This document shows, in pieces, positions 606 to 10,662 of a stretch of 10,662 bases of DNA. A program made the translations under genes and the position numbers. Position 1 is the stretch's first letter, and each line of letters opens with the position of its first letter. Under the pieces are notes generated by a model. It searched no databases and was not told the origin of the DNA. It saw only the letters and a list, made by a program, of their open reading frames with translations. Source of the stretch: Microcaldota archaeon (lineage in GTDB: Archaea > Micrarchaeota > Micrarchaeia > Anstonellales > Bilamarchaeaceae); NCBI GenBank assembly GCA_030666035.1, contig DAOUYQ010000013.1, positions 1 through 10,662 on the forward strand. The letters are read 5' to 3'.

Positions 606-1124
606 TTATGCTGCCTTGCGCATTTTTTGGGGTTCCCTTCCCCTTCTTGCTGGAAGCCTGGACACTTTGGTGCTGGAATTGACAATCTCCCGGATATCTG
701 CCATTTCCCTAAGGGTTCTTCCATGCTTTTTTGCAGTTGTTCTGAGGTTCTTTTTCAGGAATCCCTTTGAAGAACTGTAAACAAGGTCTATTGTATCGCT
801 TATTCTCTCTGCCGGTTTTCCAGTTCTATCTTTCTCTTCCCTGAGAAGGATGGGGAATATCTTCGCCGGATAGTCCATTGAAATAAGGAAAACTGCTGCA
901 TCTGCCACTATTACCACGGATTCTTCAGGGTCCTTCATTGCCTTCACTAGCGTAGTAAGGTTCTGCTCTGTAATTGTGGCTGAATCGCCGAGGAGAACGT
1001 CCATAAATTGCTTCACTGCTTCTTTTCTTTTTTCAGGGGTTCCCTTTTCAATGAGTTCTATGAGTGCAACTGGGGTCTTGCGTATGCGCAACTCTGGGCC
1101 CAATGAAATTGCCTGTTCTCCCAT
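606..1124 (-). CDS. Short HEAT-like repeat protein with basic tail
   Basis: A 172-residue soluble protein of no recognised family. Residues 18-95 form amphipathic helix pairs of HEAT type: one around LIELIEKGTPEKRKEAVKQF, a second around LTTLVKAMKDPEESVVIVAD. The C-terminal 20-odd residues are rich in Arg, Lys and Pro (KVSRLPARRG onward) and look disordered. Residues 18-80 align by eye with residues 17-77 of the HEAT-like protein starting at 9543, sharing the G-x-P-E turn and the A-M-x-x-D stretch. HEAT repeats are protein-binding scaffolds, so an adaptor role is likely, but the partner is unknown. The frame extends upstream to 1277, but that would overlap the next gene's 3' end. ATG 1124 sits 25 bases after a good TATA box, fitting a leaderless mRNA. 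Confidence 0.75.
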   Translation of the reverse strand: MGEQAISLGPELRIRKTPVALIELIEKGTPEKRKEAVKQFMDVLLGDSATITEQNLTTLVKAMKDPEESVVIVADAAVFLISMDYPAKIFPILLREEKDRTGKPAERISDTIDLVYSSSKGFLKKNLRTTAKKHGRTLREMADIREIVNSSTKVSRLPARRGREPQKMRKAA

Positions 1125-1148
1125 ACTGATATATACCCATAGAAAGTC

Positions 1149-1156
1149 TTTTAAAT
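1149..1156 (-). promoter_or_regulatory. TATA box for the short HEAT-like gene
   Basis: The minus strand reads ATTTAAAA here, 24-25 bases before ATG 1124. This spacing places transcription initiation at or next to the start codon, so the mRNA is probably leaderless. The box lies in the 77-base gap after the pseudoprotease gene, so this gene need not depend on read-through. Confidence 0.55.
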
Positions 1157-1201
1157 CCACATTTTGGGACAAAAGATTATTGCACCCTCCCTTTGGGAGC
1201 T

Positions 1202-2521
1202 TCAGGCGTAAAAGTTGATTAGGAAGTACAATGGGATGAATGTGCAGAAGGTTATTGCCCACAGCCAAAAGTTCCATTTCTTAATTAGCAGGCCTGGCAT
1301 TGGCTTAAATGGAAGGATTTCAGTTACTGCAATTGCGGATGCAACGGTCTGGAAAACAGGCAGATATTCATGCGGGGCAATGAAGTTGAGAATAAAGATT
1401 GCAATTGCCACGAGCATTGCAACCGAAAGAACCGCCCATTTCATGAGTGCTGCTTTTCTCTCCATCTCCCTGGAGATATGCTCTACTTCAAAGCCCGGAG
1501 TCTGCAGGGTAAAACCAAAAATTGAGGAAACCCAGCAGAGTGCCCCTCCGGACCCCCAGAATACATATTCTGTGTGCGTTTTGTATTTTCCATCAAAGAG
1601 CCAGCGGGTAAGGGAGCGTATATAATAGAGTATTGCAACAAAAATTACTGCTGCTGCACCCATGGGAATAAGTTCCCAGCTAAATCCTGTATAGAGGTAT
1701 GCAACGCCCATTCCATAGAAGAATGCACCTGCGAATATTGCAAGCAGCTCACGGAAACGGACTGGAACCCCAAAGAGGTGGATTCCTGTGAATACTTCCT
1801 TGACATTTTTCCTTCCGGTATCCCTCTCCTTTGTTTTGAAGATTCCTGCTAAATAGATGCGGATTACCGGGATTGCAGCCAAGGCTAAAGTTGAGAGAAG
1901 AAAGGATATTATAGGAATTGCCCCCTTAGGAATCAGTGCCCTGAGCGGGGAGGTTTCTATTCCCTCTTTCCTTAAGTTGTGGTAACCGCGAAGGTCTGAG
2001 AGAATGAAGAATTTTCCTCCCCCCGGAGTGGTTCCGGAGCGCACCATCATTTTATCAGAAAGGTTCCAGGTCCTTTGCACAAGGCCTTCTTTTTCCAGAT
2101 AAAATGCAAGGTCGTTCTGGCTGGGGCCTCCGAGGATTACAAGAAAATCGTCTGAGCGGATGAGTGGGCGCGCCTCCTCATCACTTGTTCTCTTGAATTT
2201 AAAGAATACCGGGTGTTCATTTGCAAATGCAAGGAGCACTTCCTTCTCTGCAATGGAGAGGTCTGTCCCTATTACCAGGTAGCCTCTCTCCGAGATTATT
2301 TCCCTGAGGGGCCTTCCCCCATAAGAAGCGGAAATTTCCGAAGTCATTTCCCTTAATTCCGCTCTTGTGCGCTCATCCTGGACAAGGAACTGGGGCAGCT
2401 GGATTTCATTGGAATTCTGAATTTGGGGTGCAGGCTCTCTTGGCTCTGTGTGGAGCGCGGGCGCTGCTGTGCATATTGGAACGAGTAATAATAGAAAAGA
2501 CAGCAATGCAAGAAAACGCAT
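1202..2521 (-). CDS. Membrane pseudoprotease resembling site-2 protease (M50)
   Basis: A 439-residue protein with an N-terminal signal sequence (about residues 1-20), a predicted extracytoplasmic domain (21-200, including ILGGPSQNDLAF at 130-140), and six or so membrane helices from 202 to 436. The membrane part follows the order of archaeal site-2-protease-like proteins: LHLFGVPVRF-type entry (248-256), a helix where HExxH should lie, an IFGF...TPGFEV segment (334-346), then LPFKPMPG (403-410) and a K-W-N-x-W end. The catalytic positions are replaced. HExxH reads RSLTR (302-306), and the Asp-containing L-D-G motif reads M-P-G (408-410). I therefore infer an inactive homologue that may bind or sense rather than cleave. 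The alignment is by eye against remembered family patterns. It lies downstream of the cyclase gene, in the same direction. Confidence 0.65.
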   Translation of the reverse strand: MRFLALLSFLLLLVPICTAAPALHTEPREPAPQIQNSNEIQLPQFLVQDERTRAELREMTSEISASYGGRPLREIISERGYLVIGTDLSIAEKEVLLAFANEHPVFFKFKRTSDEEARPLIRSDDFLVILGGPSQNDLAFYLEKEGLVQRTWNLSDKMMVRSGTTPGGGKFFILSDLRGYHNLRKEGIETSPLRALIPKGAIPIISFLLSTLALAAIPVIRIYLAGIFKTKERDTGRKNVKEVFTGIHLFGVPVRFRELLAIFAGAFFYGMGVAYLYTGFSWELIPMGAAAVIFVAILYYIRSLTRWLFDGKYKTHTEYVFWGSGGALCWVSSIFGFTLQTPGFEVEHISREMERKAALMKWAVLSVAMLVAIAIFILNFIAPHEYLPVFQTVASAIAVTEILPFKPMPGLLIKKWNFWLWAITFCTFIPLYFLINFYA

Positions 2522-2559: not shown

Positions 2560-4488
2560 TTATCCAGCAAGGAAGAGTTCCTTGTAAACACGCCTCATAT
2601 ATGGGTACATGCTGGTTTGGGATAGTTCACTTGCGATTGTTACCCAATCTACAGGTTCTTTTTCACCCTGGTGCGCCTTCCTTGTGCGCATAGACTGGAT
2701 TGTTCTGCTTAAGCGGATGATTTCTGCTGCGAGATCAACTTCGTCCCCTGTTGCTGATGAAATTGCCTTGTTCCTTCCGCTGAATGAAAGATTATCCAGC
2801 ACTTCAAGAGTTTCAGCAGGGAAGATGTCTTCCTGGGCTCCTCTTTTGCGCGCTGCTGCATTCCTCTCCTGGAGCAATTCTCTGGAAACACCCTGGAGAT
2901 TCCTTATCATTTCAACTACTTCAGGTCCATGGTCATCCTGCACAGTTGCGAGGGATTTTCCAAAGAGGCCCCCAATTCTCTGTGCTTTTGAAAAAGCAGT
3001 TGAAACTCCCTGGTCTGTTTCAGGAGGCTCTGCAAGCTTCAGGAGCCCGACTTCCGCAAGAAGCGAAGGGAGCACGATGCATTTTGCAACATATTCTTTC
3101 ATCTTTTCTTCGTTTATGTTTCCCTTTTTATCAAAAATTTCCTGCTGCACCAATTTGCCTTCAAGCGCCTGGAGATACTTATCCTGCTGCGCTCCCCAGT
3201 TCTTCTGGATTCCGTCCATGATGTAGAGTGCAACTCCTGCAGACCTGCAGGCTGTGCTGAATGCAAAGGAGGGTGAGCCTGTGTGCTGCATCAGGTACAT
3301 GATGTAAAACTCTGCAAGCGGGTTGAAATTAGTCTTTGTTGGGCAGCTATAATGGGTTGAAATATCCTCCACAAACTGCTCCAATTCGGATTTCTCTCCA
3401 TTTTCGCCTTTGTATTTTCCCCCGAGGAACATGTCCCTAAAGAGGCACTGCTCCGGAATAGAGCCGCTGTCTTCCTTGAAAGTAAGGTAATCCTTAAGCT
3501 CCCAGATGGAAATTTCATGCTTGCTTAGGCCTTTGAGCTTGAGGCCTGTGGCCTTTGCAAATTTCTCCTGGTAATATTCACGGCCGACTTTATTCTCAAT
3601 TTCCGAGAGTTCTTCAACAGTACAAAGCTTTTTTCCAACACCAGTTACAAGCAGGAAACGCATACGCTTTTCATGCTCTTCCCTCTTGAGAAGATACTCT
3701 GTCTTTGCATCAGCAAGCTGCTCGTCCTGGAGGTTTCTTCTCTCAAAAACGTGGAACAGGATTCCGCAAAGCTTGGATGCGCGTGCGCGCAGTTCAAATT
3801 CTTCAATAACCAGTTCCTTGCTTTTCGGAATGGTTTGGAGGTCCTTGCTCAATCTCCTGAGCTTTTTATCAATGGCATCAAGTGTTTTCTGGATCTCTTC
3901 TGCAGGCTGTGCCGGGACCAAGCGGAAGTACGGGTCCAGGGAAGTATATGCGTTCCCGTCCACTACAATTCCATCACGCTGTGCAAGGCCATTATACCTT
4001 GCTGCACGGTTCATCGTATCACAGATTACTGTGGGGCGTATTTTATTCTTGTTTATGAAAATGTATCCCATTGCCAGTGAAGCCCGAATATGGATTCTAA
4101 GGGATTCAGATTCTCCTTTTGTTTCCATCTCATAGTCAACAAGCTCATTGTGCTTTGAAAAAAGTGACCTTACGGTAAGGAGAACCCGGGCAGCTTCCGT
4201 GTTGCAAAGCCCCATATTGTCCCCGGTTGCCATAACCACCTGGGAAAGTGCATCCCCAATGAGTGTATCCATCATTGCCCTAAACGGCTTTGCTGAGCAA
4301 ATCAGGTATTTGTGCATCCTTCCAACTGTTGCATCCACTTCCTGCTGGGAACGGTTTTTTGCATCCCTGGTGGATTCTGCCTGGTCGGTCATGAGCGCGC
4401 ATCCCTTGAAATCATGCTGGGCATAGGGAAGTCCGCTATGCTCAACAACCGTCCTGCTGTAATCATCAACACTTGTATCCAAAATCAT
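2560..4488 (-). CDS. Class III nucleotide cyclase with degenerate HD-GYP-like C-terminus
   Basis: A 642-residue soluble protein. Residues 28-192 match the class III adenylate/guanylate cyclase domain. ALMTDQAEST (31-40) corresponds to the first metal-Asp motif, TLIGDAL (75-81) to the second, and CDTMNRAAR (156-164) to the transition-state Asn/Arg motif. D35 and D79 are 44 apart, as in well-studied family members, and N160 and R164 are four apart, as expected, so catalysis looks possible. The Lys and Asp that choose ATP are T75 and T153, so the substrate cannot be predicted. Residues 195-330 are helical and charged. Residues 392-640 look like an HD-GYP phosphodiesterase domain with its metal ligands lost: LLAEVG (476-481) stands where LLHDIG is usual, and DLAAEIIRLSRTIQSM (585-600) resembles the family's final motif. 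Class III cyclases are uncommon in archaea. Start ATG 4488 has a TATA-like box upstream. Confidence 0.75.
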   Translation of the reverse strand: MILDTSVDDYSRTVVEHSGLPYAQHDFKGCALMTDQAESTRDAKNRSQQEVDATVGRMHKYLICSAKPFRAMMDTLIGDALSQVVMATGDNMGLCNTEAARVLLTVRSLFSKHNELVDYEMETKGESESLRIHIRASLAMGYIFINKNKIRPTVICDTMNRAARYNGLAQRDGIVVDGNAYTSLDPYFRLVPAQPAEEIQKTLDAIDKKLRRLSKDLQTIPKSKELVIEEFELRARASKLCGILFHVFERRNLQDEQLADAKTEYLLKREEHEKRMRFLLVTGVGKKLCTVEELSEIENKVGREYYQEKFAKATGLKLKGLSKHEISIWELKDYLTFKEDSGSIPEQCLFRDMFLGGKYKGENGEKSELEQFVEDISTHYSCPTKTNFNPLAEFYIMYLMQHTGSPSFAFSTACRSAGVALYIMDGIQKNWGAQQDKYLQALEGKLVQQEIFDKKGNINEEKMKEYVAKCIVLPSLLAEVGLLKLAEPPETDQGVSTAFSKAQRIGGLFGKSLATVQDDHGPEVVEMIRNLQGVSRELLQERNAAARKRGAQEDIFPAETLEVLDNLSFSGRNKAISSATGDEVDLAAEIIRLSRTIQSMRTRKAHQGEKEPVDWVTIASELSQTSMYPYMRRVYKELFLAG

Positions 4489-4522
4489 GTTGATTCTGAA
4501 TGTGAAATCATCAAGCGGGCTA

Positions 4523-4864
4523 TTAATATTTAAGGAAACTGGGCACTCTGCCCGGGTCCCAGCTTTGAGGGTTTAACTCAAGCGGGCTTTGTGCCAGCCA
4601 TTCGAATAAAAGGTCTTTTTGGGAGTCCGGGCAGAGCGTAAGAAGCTCATTTAGCGTTGCATCCATTTTTTCCTGGTCGTGGAAAAGTGCATTCAGCCTG
4701 CAGTATTCCGGGAGCCTCTGCTTTGCATCATGCTTAAGCTCAATTGCTGAAGGGCGAAGCTTGCATTCTGTATCTGCTTTGGGGGACCTGCGCTTCACAC
4801 GCGGATTTGGGCCTCCCTCTTTCTGTGCACGAGATTTTTTCTGGATTTCTCTGGTTTCTGCCAT
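4523..4864 (-). CDS. Small basic hypothetical protein
   Basis: A 113-residue protein that I do not recognise. Residues 1-45 are strongly basic and probably disordered, with clusters such as RVKRRSPK that could bind nucleic acid or an acidic partner. Residues 46-110 are predicted helical and contain a compact segment around LNELLTLCPDSQKDLLFEWL. The frame continues three codons upstream to a GTG at 4873, but ATG 4864 is the likelier start. It ends 35 bases before the cyclase start and is co-directional with it, and the cyclase promoter overlaps its stop codon. A functional link to the cyclase is plausible but rests on position only. A GTTACATA element lies in its promoter. Confidence 0.65.
   Translation of the reverse strand: MAETREIQKKSRAQKEGGPNPRVKRRSPKADTECKLRPSAIELKHDAKQRLPEYCRLNALFHDQEKMDATLNELLTLCPDSQKDLLFEWLAQSPLELNPQSWDPGRVPSFLKY
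4525..4532 (-). promoter_or_regulatory. TATA-like box for the cyclase gene
   Basis: The minus strand reads TAAATATT here, inside a longer AT-rich stretch (4521-4533) that overlaps the end of the upstream gene. It is about 37-44 bases before ATG 4488, which would leave a leader of roughly 10-15 bases. Confidence 0.4.
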
Positions 4865-4892
4865 AAATATCACTTTTGGTGTTATAGTTAGT

Positions 4893-4960: not shown

Positions 4961-6103
4961 ATGTCGAAAAAGGAAAAAAGTGCAAATATCAGCAAAATTG
5001 CCCTCATTTTTAAACATTTAGAGGAAGAATATATTAATTGTATGGGCGGGTCCAAAGGTTTAAGTGGAGCCAGGATGGCGGAAGTCATCCGGCTTGCTAC
5101 AACTGATTTTAGTGTACTCAATTGCATTGGGCCAAAGGATTTGCAGGCTATTGCGGGCAGCGCGCTGCATGAACTTTCTCCTTCTGAGCTGCGGAGGTTC
5201 ATCATCACCTGTTTCAACTGCCAAAAAGAGAACCTGGGAATTATGATGGTGGATGAAGCAATTGCATACGCAATTGGTGGGGCTGGGAAGGAGGAACTTA
5301 TGAAAGCAGCAGTTGAGGTGATAGCTGCTCTTTCCACAAGCAACACGCTGGCGAAGGAGAAGCTATATGGGCTTCTGGAGCACGAGAATCCCGCAGTTGT
5401 TGGTGCGGTTGTGGAGAGCCTGGGGTACAGCTCCGATATGGAAAGATTCGGAAAAATATGCGGGCTGATGCTAAATCAGGATTTCAAAACCAGCCTTCTT
5501 GCAGTAGAATATGCAGAAGAATGCACGCAAAATGCTGCATTCAGAAAGCGGGAGGGCACTTATGCAATTGAACCTGCTTCAGAAGATTTTCTCAGGAATG
5601 CCCTTAATCGCCTTGAGGGCACATACAGGCAGCTTCAGGAAAGGGGGGGAGGACACCTAAAAAAGAGGATTATCCTGCTCATTGCATTAAGTTATAATGC
5701 GATTCTGGATTCCACGGAGTGGAAAATAGCAAAGGGGGAGGAAGTGGAAAAGAGGATATACTACAGCCTGGAGGAGCATCTGCATGAGGAGATTGGGCCA
5801 TCTGTGCGGCCGCTGCTCTTCAAGATGCTTTTGCATGGGGGAATTGAAGAGGGGACTGAGAAATCTGCGCTCAGCACCCTCGGGCGGCTGAGCAACAACA
5901 GGAAGCACCGGGCGAAAATCTCTTCCTGGATTAATAATGAGTATCTTATTCTCGAAAAACCAAAGAGCCTGCGGAACCTTGCATGGATGGTAAGGGACAG
6001 TTGCATGAGGGGAAAGCGGTTCTCTTCAATTCCTGCTCCTGCAAGCGATAAGACGAGCATAGTGCCAAAGGGGCTTGCTCCAAGCACTATGAAAAGGAAA
6101 TGA
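4961..6103 (+). CDS. HEAT-like repeat protein, 380 residues
   Basis: A soluble, mostly helical protein without a recognised family name. Its clearest HEAT-type pairs are at residues 110-155, with ELMKAAVEVIAAL followed by LYGLLEHENPAVVGAVVESL. Further helix pairs at 235-250 and 283-312 (ALSTLGRLS) fit an alpha-solenoid. The last 25 residues (SIPAPASDKTSIVPKGLAPS and beyond) are rich in Pro, Ser and Lys and look disordered, like the tails of the other HEAT-like proteins here. No catalytic motif is visible, so a scaffold or adaptor role is inferred. It is divergent from the cyclase block and convergent with the NurA-like gene, the two stops being only 2 bases apart. ATG 4961 is the first in-frame start after the promoter box. 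Confidence 0.75.
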   Translation: MSKKEKSANISKIALIFKHLEEEYINCMGGSKGLSGARMAEVIRLATTDFSVLNCIGPKDLQAIAGSALHELSPSELRRFIITCFNCQKENLGIMMVDEAIAYAIGGAGKEELMKAAVEVIAALSTSNTLAKEKLYGLLEHENPAVVGAVVESLGYSSDMERFGKICGLMLNQDFKTSLLAVEYAEECTQNAAFRKREGTYAIEPASEDFLRNALNRLEGTYRQLQERGGGHLKKRIILLIALSYNAILDSTEWKIAKGEEVEKRIYYSLEEHLHEEIGPSVRPLLFKMLLHGGIEEGTEKSALSTLGRLSNNRKHRAKISSWINNEYLILEKPKSLRNLAWMVRDSCMRGKRFSSIPAPASDKTSIVPKGLAPSTMKRK

Positions 6104-6105
6104 GC

Positions 6106-7128
6106 TTACCTGAATGGCCTTGAATTTCTTCTTAAATCCAACAGGCTTGGGCCTGCAAAAAGGCTTAGGGATTTCTTTGCCCGCTCCAGTTCCTGCGGGT
6201 TCATCATTGCCCTTAAATCCGCATCAATTAGGATTGCAGGATAGGCATAAGAGCGGTTAATGCTTGAAATTGTGGAGATGAAATCTGCGGTTTCGGAAAA
6301 AGACTTTTGGCCGTTTAGGAATTCAATTCGCATGGGGCGGTCAGCCATCACTGGTTTTATGTACATTGCGCATATTTTTTCTCCCCACTTCCCAAGTTCC
6401 CTTAGCACATGGTGTTTTTGGGGGGATTCGGAATATCTGAATGCAAAGGTTCTTTCCCCCTCTTTCAGGAGATGGTGGAGAAATACTGTATCCGATGCCC
6501 TGAGAGTTACCTGGGACCGAAGCATCTCCATTAACCTTCTTGAGCGGGAATCCTTTATTGCCCCTACAAGCACAATTGAATTTTCAGTGCAAAAAGAATA
6601 GAGCTCCTTGTAAGTGTTGAGCAGGGTCAGGTACTTTGGGAATATGCAGGATTCTTCTGCGGGCCGATCAGAGCTTAATGGGCAGATTGAGCCGTCCAAA
6701 AGAAGATAATCTGGAGTTTCTTTTTTTGCGGTTTCCAGTGCATTCTGGATTTCCAATTGCAGGCGGAAGAGGGAACTGTGCCAGAGCACTTCCCGCTCAT
6801 CCAGGCCTGTTTCCACTTCATAAGAAGGGTGGGAAAATGTCCTTGGGAAGTATGTGTGGGTGCTTATTGCCCCATCTGAATAATTGAACGTGGAGGAAAC
6901 TGCCTTTGCAATTAGGAGGTCGGCTCCATGCATTTCGTAGGCAAGGATTCCCCCATCTACTGCTGAAATTTTTCCTTCAATTTTTGTTTTATTTAAAGGA
7001 AGAATGAATTCAGGCTCCAGTGAGTCCTTTGGAATCCGGGCTTCTGAGCGAACTCTTTGTGCGGCATTTGCCCTGGAGCGTTCTATCTCCTGGATGTGCG
7101 CTGCTGCTTTTTTCAACTGCTCAAGCAT
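6106..7128 (-). CDS. nurA: NurA-family nuclease
   Basis: A 340-residue protein with the order of motifs found in NurA, the toroidal 5'-3' nuclease that works with the HerA translocase in archaeal DNA end resection. Visible are SAVDGGILAY (55-64, first metal Asp at D58), an acidic helix LQLEIQNALE (123-132, candidate Glu E126), YLLLDGSI (141-148, D145), LVGAIKDSRSR (187-197), and YPAILIDADLRA (296-307) near the end. The length is typical for the family. The C-terminal motif has Asp where many NurA proteins have His, so activity is likely but not certain. herA, which often adjoins nurA in archaea, is not in this window. Start ATG 7128 follows a TATA-like box by about 22 bases, giving a short or absent leader. 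Confidence 0.8.
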   Translation of the reverse strand: MLEQLKKAAAHIQEIERSRANAAQRVRSEARIPKDSLEPEFILPLNKTKIEGKISAVDGGILAYEMHGADLLIAKAVSSTFNYSDGAISTHTYFPRTFSHPSYEVETGLDEREVLWHSSLFRLQLEIQNALETAKKETPDYLLLDGSICPLSSDRPAEESCIFPKYLTLLNTYKELYSFCTENSIVLVGAIKDSRSRRLMEMLRSQVTLRASDTVFLHHLLKEGERTFAFRYSESPQKHHVLRELGKWGEKICAMYIKPVMADRPMRIEFLNGQKSFSETADFISTISSINRSYAYPAILIDADLRAMMNPQELERAKKSLSLFAGPSLLDLRRNSRPFR

Positions 7129-7383: not shown

Positions 7384-8082
7384 ATGGTGACCGACACGTA
7401 TACAAAAATGTTCCAGGCATTATTGCCAAAGAACATTAAAGACTTTGCCAAGAAAGGCGGGGGCACGGTGCAGGACGGAATTAAAGTCTTTGTGCTGGCT
7501 TGGATTATTACCCTTGTTCTTGGCATTATAGGATTCTTTGTTGCAGTAGGCACTGCGGGAGCAGAGATGCAGGCGCTCAGCAGCATGATTGGGCTGGAGC
7601 TCGTTGGATTCCTCGGAGTCGTGGTTCTGATTATTGGTTCGGTAATCGCGCTTATCTGGGGAGTTGTTGGCCAGTACATCATGCAGTATGTGGGAGCTTG
7701 GTGCGCAATTAGCTTTTTCAATGGAAAGGGAAAGTTTGCACACCAATTCTACGTAGTGATGTTATTCACTGGTGCGATAATGATTATCTCATCGGTGTTT
7801 GGGCTTCTGGATGCGATTGTTCCAGCCATTGTGATAGTTACTTCAATTATTTCTCTCGTGCTTTGGCTATGGAGCCTGTACCTGCTATACCTCACGATTA
7901 AGAACGTGCATGGCCTTGAGCTTGGGGGTTCAGTAATTTCCACCTTTGTAGTGCTCATTGTCGGAGTCGTGCTTACCCTCATTGTTGGGATCGCGCTTGC
8001 GGCAGTATTGGTGGGTGTAGTTGGAGCGGGTGCCCTTGGAGGCGTAGCAGCAACTGGAGGCCTTGGCAACCTGGGAATCTAA
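7384..8082 (+). CDS. Yip1-like multi-pass membrane protein
   Basis: A 232-residue hydrophobic protein resembling the YIP1/YIF1 domain family, whose archaeal members have no established function. A basic amphipathic N-terminus (residues 1-32) precedes about five membrane helices at roughly 33-57, 73-98, 122-142, 145-171 and 184-213. A conserved-looking polar turn with GQYIMQYVGAWCAISFFNGKG (middle part at 96-116) separates helices two and three. The C-terminus is a Gly-rich tail. It has its own promoter and a T-rich terminator, so it is probably monocistronic. It is one of three membrane proteins in the window, and nothing in its sequence ties it to the cyclase. Confidence 0.7.
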   Translation: MVTDTYTKMFQALLPKNIKDFAKKGGGTVQDGIKVFVLAWIITLVLGIIGFFVAVGTAGAEMQALSSMIGLELVGFLGVVVLIIGSVIALIWGVVGQYIMQYVGAWCAISFFNGKGKFAHQFYVVMLFTGAIMIISSVFGLLDAIVPAIVIVTSIISLVLWLWSLYLLYLTIKNVHGLELGGSVISTFVVLIVGVVLTLIVGIALAAVLVGVVGAGALGGVAATGGLGNLGI

Positions 8083-8290: not shown

Positions 8291-8632
8291 GTGTATAAAC
8301 AGGCGATGGTTGTAAGAAAAGATCTGAACATGTCCGTAGGGAAAATAAGCGCGCAGGTTAGTCATGCTTCGCTGGAGGCCTACAAGAAGGCATCGCCCGA
8401 GGTGAAGAAAGCCTGGGAAATGAGCGGGATGAAGAAGATTGTGCTGAAGGTTAATTCTGAGAAAGACCTGCTTGAGTATTTTATGCAGTGCAAGGATGCG
8501 GGAATGAAGCCTGCACTGATTCGGGATGCGGGGCATACGCAAATTCCTGCGGGGACGATTACTGGCTTTGGGGTTGGGCCTGCGGAAGAAATGGAAATAG
8601 ACAAAATTCTTGGGGAGCTAAAACTTCTCTAG
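8291..8632 (+). CDS. pth2: Peptidyl-tRNA hydrolase, archaeal/eukaryotic type (Pth2)
   Basis: A 113-residue enzyme of the Pth2 family, which cleaves the ester bond of peptidyl-tRNA released prematurely from ribosomes, recycling tRNA in the cytoplasm. The full family length is present. The N-terminal strand and helix read VVRKDLNMSVGKISAQVSHA, holding the conserved Lys and His. The later motif ALIRDAGHTQIPAGT holds the conserved Asp and Thr, followed by the usual GFGVGP. The start is GTG 8291, preceded by a GAGGGGAG ribosome-binding sequence five bases away. The overlapping ATG at 8289 is out of frame and quickly hits a stop, and the internal ATG 8306 would remove conserved N-terminal residues. 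The promoter of the next gene begins within ten bases of its stop. Confidence 0.95.
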   Translation: MYKQAMVVRKDLNMSVGKISAQVSHASLEAYKKASPEVKKAWEMSGMKKIVLKVNSEKDLLEYFMQCKDAGMKPALIRDAGHTQIPAGTITGFGVGPAEEMEIDKILGELKLL

Positions 8633-8640
8633 AATGCACA

Positions 8641-8648
8641 TTTATAAA
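8641..8648 (+). promoter_or_regulatory. TATA box for the 239-residue HEAT-like gene
   Basis: TTTATAAA lies 26-33 bases before GTG 8674, which predicts initiation at about 8670-8674 and a leaderless message. This spacing is the main reason for choosing that start codon. Confidence 0.55.
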
Positions 8649-8673
8649 CATTTATCCACATAGAGTAAATCTG

Positions 8674-9393
8674 GTGGCCTGTGTGTGGAAAACAGATGAG
8701 GGGCATAATGCGAGTATTGATCAGACAATACTGGCAGCTGTTAGGGATATCGAAGGGAAATCAAAGCCTCCCCAGGATGAGGGGGAAGCAAAGCTCAAGA
8801 GGATTTTTAGAGAATTGAGGAGCACTAAAAATTTTATTGAAAAACGAAAGATTGCCAAGGGGGTGCTTAGGGGCGAATATGGAATAAAAAATGAACTTCT
8901 TGCTAAATTTATGCTTGGGCCCATGGAATTTAATGAGATACTCGAAGACAAGAGGGATATTGGGCTTCCCCTTCTTGAGCTGCTTGGGGAGAAAAATGAA
9001 AAGGTGCGGATGAAAATTGTGAAGATGCTTGGGGAGAGGGGGAATGAAAAGGTGCCTCCTAAAATGTATTCTGGCTTGGATGAGGAGAAGTACGCGCTAA
9101 GGTATGGGTATGCCTGTGCGCTTGGAAGAATGAGCAGGAATATTAAGGATGAAAAAGTCCTTCGCGAGATGGAGGGTGTTCTTGCAGCCCGTGAGGATAA
9201 GGCGGGCATTTCTGGCGGTTTGATACTGGTGCGCCAGAGGCTTCAGGAGTTAAGTGGGGCAAATGATAGGAAAGGCATTCCTGCTAAATTGAGGATAGGT
9301 GGGGGAAGTGGGGCGCCAGGGAGAAGGGGGGATAAGACTAATCCAATGTTTGAAACTATGGTGGGCGTAGTGGAGAAGAACCTGCGGCGCTAA
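8674..9393 (+). CDS. HEAT-like repeat protein, 239 residues, GTG start
   Basis: A soluble helical protein with no recognised family. HEAT-type units are clear at residues 98-123 (LPLLELLGEKNEKVRMKIV then KMLGERG) and 138-170 (EKYALRYGYACALGRM, then VLREMEGVL). The first 50 residues are charged and less ordered. From residue 197 to 225 there is a Gly-, Lys- and Arg-rich linker (RIGGGSGAPGRRGDK), followed by a short amphipathic helix at the end. The frame is open well into pth2, but that upstream part is Cys- and Gly-rich and unlike the rest. GTG 8674 fits the TATA spacing, with GTG 8683 as the alternative. No catalytic motif is visible, so an adaptor role is inferred. The next HEAT-like gene follows in the same direction. 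Confidence 0.7.
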   Translation: MACVWKTDEGHNASIDQTILAAVRDIEGKSKPPQDEGEAKLKRIFRELRSTKNFIEKRKIAKGVLRGEYGIKNELLAKFMLGPMEFNEILEDKRDIGLPLLELLGEKNEKVRMKIVKMLGERGNEKVPPKMYSGLDEEKYALRYGYACALGRMSRNIKDEKVLREMEGVLAAREDKAGISGGLILVRQRLQELSGANDRKGIPAKLRIGGGSGAPGRRGDKTNPMFETMVGVVEKNLRR

Positions 9394-9542: not shown

Positions 9543-10662
9543 ATGAATTATAGGGCGGGGGAAACACCAAACCGATATCCTGGAGTGCCTCAAAGTATAG
9601 TAGATTCACTTCTCAGTGGAGCTCCTGAGATGGCCATAGCCAGGGTAGGATGGGTGATGGAGCAGAGCAAGACTTCCCCTAAAGCATTTCTGCTTCTGTT
9701 GGATGCGCTTATGGAAAGGGATGAGCATATTGTGAAGGATGCTGCACGCAAAGCTGTAATGAAGACAATTGAGGGCGCGCGTTATTTTCATGCTGATGAC
9801 CGGGTGTCGGAGATAAACTCCTGGATGCCCAGGCGGGAAAAGATAATTGAACCTTTAAGCTATGGGAGGGAAAAGGGAACCCTCTTTGTGAATCTGCTCA
9901 AAGCAGAAGAGAGGAAAAAGGCATTGCTGCTTGCTGCAAAGGGACTGGAGGACAACCTGGAGTATGTTGAGCGCATGGTGGCAGCCAAAGCGATGCTGGA
10001 GCTGCTGGGGAAAAGGGGAGAGCGTGAAGAAATTGTTACTGCGGTCAAAGGCATCATTAACAAGCTGGTTAGAATAAAGGAGGAAGACGCTGTGATTTTT
10101 ATCCTTCCCGGGCTGGGGGAGATGAGGGAAAATAATGCAGCAGTTGAAGTGCTAGGTTCACTGCTTGATAATAAAGCGCTTAGTGTTGGTGGGAAATGCG
10201 AAGTAATCCGGCAATTTCTGTTTATTGGAGGGCATGAAGCCCTGGAGCAGCTAAAAAAAGCAGTGGGAGATGAGAGGGTTGGGGTCAGGCTTGAAGCATA
10301 CCTGGTTATCGAGGGGCTTGAGTATCTGGATATGGAGGGTTCTGGAAATAAAGTGGAGCAGGTTATTGCCAGGGGGGCGCTCAATATGAATGAGAAGCCC
10401 AGGGTGAGAATCGAACTGATAAACTGGATGGGCGAGCATGGAAAGGATGTTCTGGTGCCCCTGGAACAGATTATTGGGCAGGAAACAGATGAAGAAGTGA
10501 TAGCTGCAGCAGAAAAAGCCAGCCTGAGAGTCGGAAAAAGGATGCAGCAGCAGGATTCTGGAGAGAGGACTTCTGATAAGCCTACCCTGACCCCTGGAGC
10601 TATTGGTGTGGGGAGCACTAAGGGGGAAAAATGCTCTCCTGATGAGAAAACAGGTGCAATAT
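9543..10662 (+). CDS. HEAT-like repeat protein, truncated by the window end
   Basis: The frame is open from ATG 9543 to the last base, giving 373 visible residues without a stop. It is an alpha-solenoid made of HEAT-type pairs, among them FLLLLDALMERDEHIVKDAA (49-68), AVGDERVGVRLEAYLVIEGL (240-259) and IELINWMGEHGKD (290-302) with VLVPLEQIIGQETDEEVIAA (303-322). From about residue 333 the sequence becomes polar and rich in Ser, Thr, Gly and Pro, like the tails of the neighbouring HEAT-like proteins, so the end of the gene is probably near. Its first 80 residues align by eye with the 172-residue protein at 606-1124. No enzymatic motif is visible. HEAT proteins usually act as scaffolds, and the partner is unknown. 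Confidence 0.8.
   Translation, partial: MNYRAGETPNRYPGVPQSIVDSLLSGAPEMAIARVGWVMEQSKTSPKAFLLLLDALMERDEHIVKDAARKAVMKTIEGARYFHADDRVSEINSWMPRREKIIEPLSYGREKGTLFVNLLKAEERKKALLLAAKGLEDNLEYVERMVAAKAMLELLGKRGEREEIVTAVKGIINKLVRIKEEDAVIFILPGLGEMRENNAAVEVLGSLLDNKALSVGGKCEVIRQFLFIGGHEALEQLKKAVGDERVGVRLEAYLVIEGLEYLDMEGSGNKVEQVIARGALNMNEKPRVRIELINWMGEHGKDVLVPLEQIIGQETDEEVIAAAEKASLRVGKRMQQQDSGERTSDKPTLTPGAIGVGSTKGEKCSPDEKTGAI

What the first reader, a model, noticed from the sequence alone, without database searches (positions are those of the whole stretch)
2560..4488. Archaeal class III cyclase fused to an apparently inactive HD-GYP-like domain
The N-terminal domain keeps both metal Asp residues (D35, D79, exactly 44 apart) and the Asn/Arg pair (N160, R164), so it looks catalytically competent. 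The C-terminal 250 residues follow the HD-GYP pattern but lack its metal ligands (AEVG in place of HDIG, and Ser in place of the late Asp). A live synthetase joined to a dead phosphodiesterase-like domain suggests the HD part is a ligand sensor. Class III cyclases are rarely reported in archaea.
Basis: partly seen in the sequence, partly recalled or inferred. Interest (0 to 1): 0.78.

Follow-up and report, generated by a model that had tools for sequence, protein, structure and literature searches.

The report
Archaeal cyclase with two dead-enzyme partners
A small-genome archaeon appears to carry an enzyme of the cAMP-making kind fused to a worn-out phosphodiesterase-like domain and encoded beside a worn-out membrane protease, a combination that looks like an undescribed signalling unit in a group where such signalling is barely known.

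The parts
2560..4488 (-). Main frame of the cyclase gene, 642 aa (residue 1 at 4488); P0002 residue number minus 125 = number here
   Evidence: relatives; NG86 dN 0.203, dS 1.896 to L020, dS near saturation
4523..4873 (-). N-terminal piece of the same gene in another frame (ORF of 116 aa); mostly helical in the P0002 model
   Evidence: 49% identical to residues 1-112 of the L020 protein over 110 codons; separate A2 profile match, model 8-99, E 2.8e-22
4520..4545 (-). Place of the frame break (A-rich stretch) that splits the gene; assembly error or real damage not distinguished
3481..4428 (-). Class III nucleotide cyclase domain (about residues 21-336), including a helical insertion
4384..4386 (-). 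D35, first metal Asp
4252..4254 (-). D79, second metal Asp (GD motif)
3997..4011 (-). N160 to R164, Asn/Arg pair
3544..3900 (-). Helical insertion, about residues 197-315, between the cyclase core and its last strand
   Evidence: AF2 secondary structure of P0002 322-440; boundaries are my reading
3487..3534 (-). Invariant Lys-Gly (residues 319-320) and the strand read as the last of the cyclase sheet (328-334)
2563..3480 (-). Degenerate HD-GYP-like domain, residues 337-642
3046..3057 (-). AEVG (478-481), the place of HDIG
1202..2521 (-). Partner gene, 439 aa: signal-peptide-like start, outer domain (S-layer-like in relatives), S2P/M50-like membrane half without zinc ligands; starts 38 bases after the cyclase gene

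Best explanation
A signalling unit of two co-directional genes. The first encodes a protein of about 765 aa: an N-terminal helical domain, a class III nucleotide cyclase core with a helical insertion, and a C-terminal HD-GYP-derived domain without a usable metal site. The second encodes a membrane protein derived from site-2 (M50) proteases that has lost its zinc site. Proposed working: the cyclase acts as a homodimer making a 3',5'-cyclic mononucleotide of unknown base; the dead HD-GYP domain holds or senses a nucleotide or protein partner and gates the dimer; the dead protease couples the cyclase to an envelope signal. Shown by computation: cyclase fold and residues, loss of the other two active sites, purifying selection, adjacency in three genomes. 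Inferred: catalytic activity, gating and coupling.
Confidence: 0.58

Rival explanations
1. Pycsar-like antiviral pair: the cyclase makes a cyclic pyrimidine nucleotide on infection and the adjacent membrane protein is the killing effector.
Against: Ordinary cyclases score higher. The Arg/Gln or Lys/Phe of PycC clades E and D near the second Asp are not found: those columns carry T/V/N, I/V/T and S/N in all 27 (residues from PMC11224242; clade B positions could not be placed). The partner has no PADLOC match and no PF00027 domain is found in the genome. The partner is S2P-derived and absent from the cyclase's side in 7 of 10 carriers. Neighbours F6, F7, NurA and Yip1 are shared with L019, so it is not an obvious defence island.
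Confidence: 0.12
2. The C-terminal half is an unrelated helical bundle that only looks like HD-GYP; the protein is a cyclase with a private regulatory domain.
For: No sequence match to PDB or Pfam; Foldseek best HD-GYP E 0.19, below two chains of one designed helical protein; hhalign probability 7.0 and 1.6%.
Against: All ten best VIA rows (six proteins) are HD-GYP or HD phosphodiesterases; the profile comparison exceeds 200 of 200 shuffles with 27 rows and 199 of 200 with 23, with the C-terminal motif roughly in register.
Confidence: 0.2
3. In this genome the gene is a decaying pseudogene.
For: Frame break between the two pieces; the N-terminal piece is less conserved (NG86 dN/dS 0.455/1.743).
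Against: The other 642 codons are open with NG86 dN/dS about 0.11 to L020; an 83%-identical relative is intact; breaks in A-rich runs are a common assembly fault (general knowledge).
Confidence: 0.15
4. Both the cyclase and the HD-like domain are non-catalytic and the protein is a nucleotide-binding regulator.
For: Adenine-specifying Lys absent (T, V or N in 27 of 27); no known receptor.
Against: Metal Asp pair, Asn, Arg and the late Lys-Gly are invariant at 17% identity, which a binding-only domain need not keep.
Confidence: 0.12

Closest known systems
Class III nucleotide cyclases (CyaB of Pseudomonas, CyaC of Spirulina, Rv1625c, RhoGC)
   Same: Fold, both metal Asp, Asn/Arg pair, late Lys-Gly and strand
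   Different: About 120-residue helical insertion before the last strand; adenine-specifying Lys replaced by T, V or N; no Pfam match for the window protein
HD-GYP domain phosphodiesterases (DvhD 9rbz, PA4781 4r8z, 4mcw, Bd1817 3tm8)
   Same: Overall helical arrangement and weak profile similarity
   Different: No HD at the HDIG place, no HHE, no GYP, no late Asp in 27 of 27 sequences
Pycsar pyrimidine cyclases (PycC)
   Same: Class III core; weak PADLOC profile match; 44-residue Asp spacing
   Different: Clade D and E pocket residues near the second Asp differ; partner has no PADLOC match
Site-2 proteases / Peptidase M50 (for the partner gene)
   Same: Membrane half found by one profile with PF02163 proteins
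   Different: HExxH becomes R[ST]xxR and LDG becomes MPG; added outer domain, S-layer-like in relatives but below Pfam cut-off
Degenerate HD-GYP protein HdgB of Streptomyces (PMC6205966, two passages)
   Same: HD-GYP descendant lacking key residues, retained and expressed
   Different: Nothing in the two passages links it to a cyclase

Membership tests
Class III nucleotide cyclase | Cyclase fold | tested here: met
Class III nucleotide cyclase | Two metal-binding Asp plus Asn and Arg | tested here: met
   D160 26 of 26 (one row truncated), D204, N285, R289 27 of 27
Class III nucleotide cyclase | Passes the Pfam PF00211 cut-off | tested here: inconclusive
   Window protein no match; 2 of 12 relatives match at E up to 1, L019 over the cut-off
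Class III nucleotide cyclase | Adenine-specifying Lys (adenylate cyclase sub-type; role of the Lys recalled) | tested here: not met
   T in 19, V in 4, N in 4 of 27; so 'adenylate cyclase' is not claimed
Class III nucleotide cyclase | Homodimer and activity | not testable with these tools
   No dimer prediction or assay made
HD-GYP phosphodiesterase | HD superfamily fold | tested here: met
HD-GYP phosphodiesterase | HD, HHE and late Asp metal ligands | tested here: not met
   xE in 26 and SD in 1 of 27 at the HD place, no HHE, no Asp at either late column
HD-GYP phosphodiesterase | GYP motif | tested here: not met
   0 of 27 C-terminal domains contain GYP
Pycsar (PycC system) | PycC profile match | tested here: inconclusive
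   E 0.0036 for the window protein, best 0.0081 among 12 relatives
Pycsar (PycC system) | Pyrimidine-specifying residues of PycC clades D or E | tested here: not met
   M, T, I, S at the corresponding places of the window and P0002; Phe at the first place in 4 of 27 only
Pycsar (PycC system) | Adjacent cyclic-nucleotide-binding effector of a known type | tested here: not met
   Partner has no PADLOC match; PF00027 absent from G000, which is 82% complete; unknown effectors not excluded
Peptidase M50 / S2P (partner gene) | Sequence homology of the membrane core | tested here: met
   Profile A8 finds L079 (8.5e-10) and L081 (5.0e-9), both over the PF02163 cut-off; the partner itself and the long HExxH relatives scanned are below that cut-off
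Peptidase M50 / S2P (partner gene) | HExxH and LDG zinc ligands | tested here: not met
   RSLTR and MPG in the window; R[ST]xxR and MPG in all 4 cyclase-adjacent copies

The most novel reading that the evidence does not exclude
An archaeal transmembrane signalling system in which two worn-out enzymes, an envelope-facing site-2 protease as sensor and an HD-GYP domain as receptor, were recruited to control a live cyclase that makes a non-standard cyclic nucleotide read by an undiscovered receptor, in Micrarchaeota with genomes of about 1 Mb in which no CRP-type receptor was found.
Probability: 0.25. Interest if true: 0.82.

Novelty: new variant of a known kind. Interest (0 to 1): 0.6.

Why it matters
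How archaea make and read cyclic mononucleotides is open: PMC8646023 (passages) reports 3',5'-cNMPs in archaea without identified cyclases and says very few predicted archaeal adenylate cyclases are class III, and a 2005 census (PMC1183210, passages) found no class 3 cyclases in archaea apart from diverged, probably inactive frames. A divergent cyclase family that keeps the catalytic residues, with intact members in near relatives, gives a protein to assay. The pairing with a dead site-2 protease would be a case of a pseudo-protease recruited to second-messenger control; I saw none described in listings 91 and 102 (titles and abstract starts only, 10 of 10 and 8 of 19 papers shown).

Tried and rejected
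Pfam, NCBIfam, PHROGs and PDB phmmer on the single window protein gave only chance hits: set aside because profile and structure agree on a cyclase. Adenylate cyclase as such: not claimed, for lack of the Lys. tRNA and Rfam scans empty. Viral contigs: 57 pattern matches, none a relative. A profile search of the protein database with A2 returned only known members; all three protein searches scored only about 8,000 candidates sharing most words, so the 21 proteins seen, the window's own included, are a lower bound. Search of the C-terminal domain alone over 301 genomes found the same 10 carriers plus one weak 99-residue frame in G247 (E 2.8e-4, not followed). PF00211 over 301 genomes missed G002, whose protein passes the cut-off, so 18 of 301 is a lower bound. 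The N-terminal helical domain and the helical insertion were not folded alone; nothing is claimed about their folds. The observed profile scores differ a little between (27.2 and 22.0; 29.7 and 21.3) because the column rule was changed. L054-L064 and several canonical-cyclase loci were not examined further.

Full report
What is there. The finding's coordinates hold a 642-residue frame on the minus strand, 4488..2560; the plus strand read in that frame is full of stops. The window is contig C132, 10,662 bases, of a 0.95 Mb genome, 82% complete. Five relatives in named records are Candidatus Micrarchaeota MAGs. The protein database gave 21 proteins including the window's own over two searches. 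A profile search finds matches in 12 of 84 genomes of the order; two of these (G057, G079) are short, weak and belong to stand-alone canonical cyclases, leaving 10 carriers.

The frame is a fragment. Of 27 sequences compared, those not cut short have 733-808 residues. The missing ~125 N-terminal residues are encoded just upstream in another frame, 4873..4523 (116 aa), and the genome search returns two overlapping matches, model positions 8-99 and 82-749. So there is a frame break near 4520-4545; I cannot say whether it is real. The main piece is under strong purifying selection against L020 (NG86 dN 0.203, dS 1.896, near saturation; the second method failed for it).

The partner gene. 38 bases downstream on the same strand lies a 439-residue protein with a signal-peptide-like start and several hydrophobic segments. 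The same gene follows the cyclase in G004, and twice in a row in G028. Its profile finds relatives in 19 of 84 genomes of the order. Two of the six short ones were scanned (L079, L081) and are over the Peptidase M50 cut-off; the partner itself and the long relatives scanned are not. An S-layer outer-domain match, best E 5e-4 and below cut-off, covers part of the front of several long relatives but not of the window's protein. Of 14 long relatives, 9 keep HExxH and LDG, all in genomes without the cyclase family; all 4 cyclase-adjacent copies have lost them, and so has L068 from G062, which has no cyclase. All 6 short relatives keep both. The loss goes with the cyclase but is not exclusive to it, and the four copies are related, so no probability is claimed.

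Distribution and receptors. Three of 10 carriers have this partner next to the cyclase. Five carriers of one genus have a different neighbour, PF02636 in the one copy scanned. Two carriers of the window's own genus have a cyclase only about 17-20% identical, without the partner; in G002 it sits among the window's own neighbours (F6, F7, NurA, Yip1) but in the opposite orientation. None of the 10 carriers shows a CRP-type cNMP-binding domain (PF00027: 2 of 84 genomes, G048 and G066, the latter below cut-off). The own genome is 82% complete, so absence is not proof.

Interpretation. What changes is the frame break, the domain border, the unsuitable clustering test and a second dead enzyme as neighbour. 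I think the most likely working is a homodimeric cyclase gated by a pseudo-HD domain and coupled to the envelope by a pseudo-protease. The domains rest on computed evidence; gating and coupling rest on adjacency and analogy. One database entry of the family already bears the name 'class 3 adenylate cyclase' (P0005), so the cyclase call is not new in itself. Of the papers listed (8 and 5) no title or abstract start is about a Micrarchaeota cyclase. Of the four, three were checked by passages and those passages describe no class III cyclase fused to HD-GYP; two of them, from 2005 and 2006, place HD-GYP or c-di-GMP phosphodiesterases outside archaea, which makes the HD-GYP genes of this phylum notable.

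Noticed in passing
window 1202-2521 (-): Pseudo-S2P membrane protein; HExxH replaced by RSLTR and LDG by MPG
   Followed up: yes
window 4520-4545 (-): Frame break splitting the cyclase gene
   Followed up: partly
L102 and L103 (G276, G277): Canonical class III cyclase and an HD-GYP gene with intact motif lie about 1-2 kb apart, on opposite strands, in two genomes of one genus
   Followed up: partly
phylum-wide: Canonical class III cyclases in at least 18 of 301 and HD-GYP matches in 29 of 301 genomes of this archaeal phylum, although a 2005 census and a 2006 survey placed such domains outside archaea (passages)
   Followed up: no
L018 7294-9609 (-), L019 8553-10880 (+): Second, about 17-20% identical version of the cyclase in the same genus; the L019 copy sits among the window's own neighbour genes in the opposite orientation
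   Followed up: partly
window 606-1277 (-), 4961-6103 (+), 8488-9393 (+), 9543-10662 (+): HEAT-like or uncharacterised proteins around the operon; F6 (606-1277) and F7 (4961-6103) recur beside the cyclase in G004 and G002
   Followed up: no
window 6106-7128 (-), 7384-8082 (+), 8291-8632 (+): NurA nuclease, Yip1-domain protein and archaeal peptidyl-tRNA hydrolase Pth2
   Followed up: no
L050, L052, L053 (G048:C126): The only genome of 84 in the order with cNMP-binding domains over the Pfam cut-off: three matches on one contig, two of them inside one 1042-residue frame
   Followed up: no
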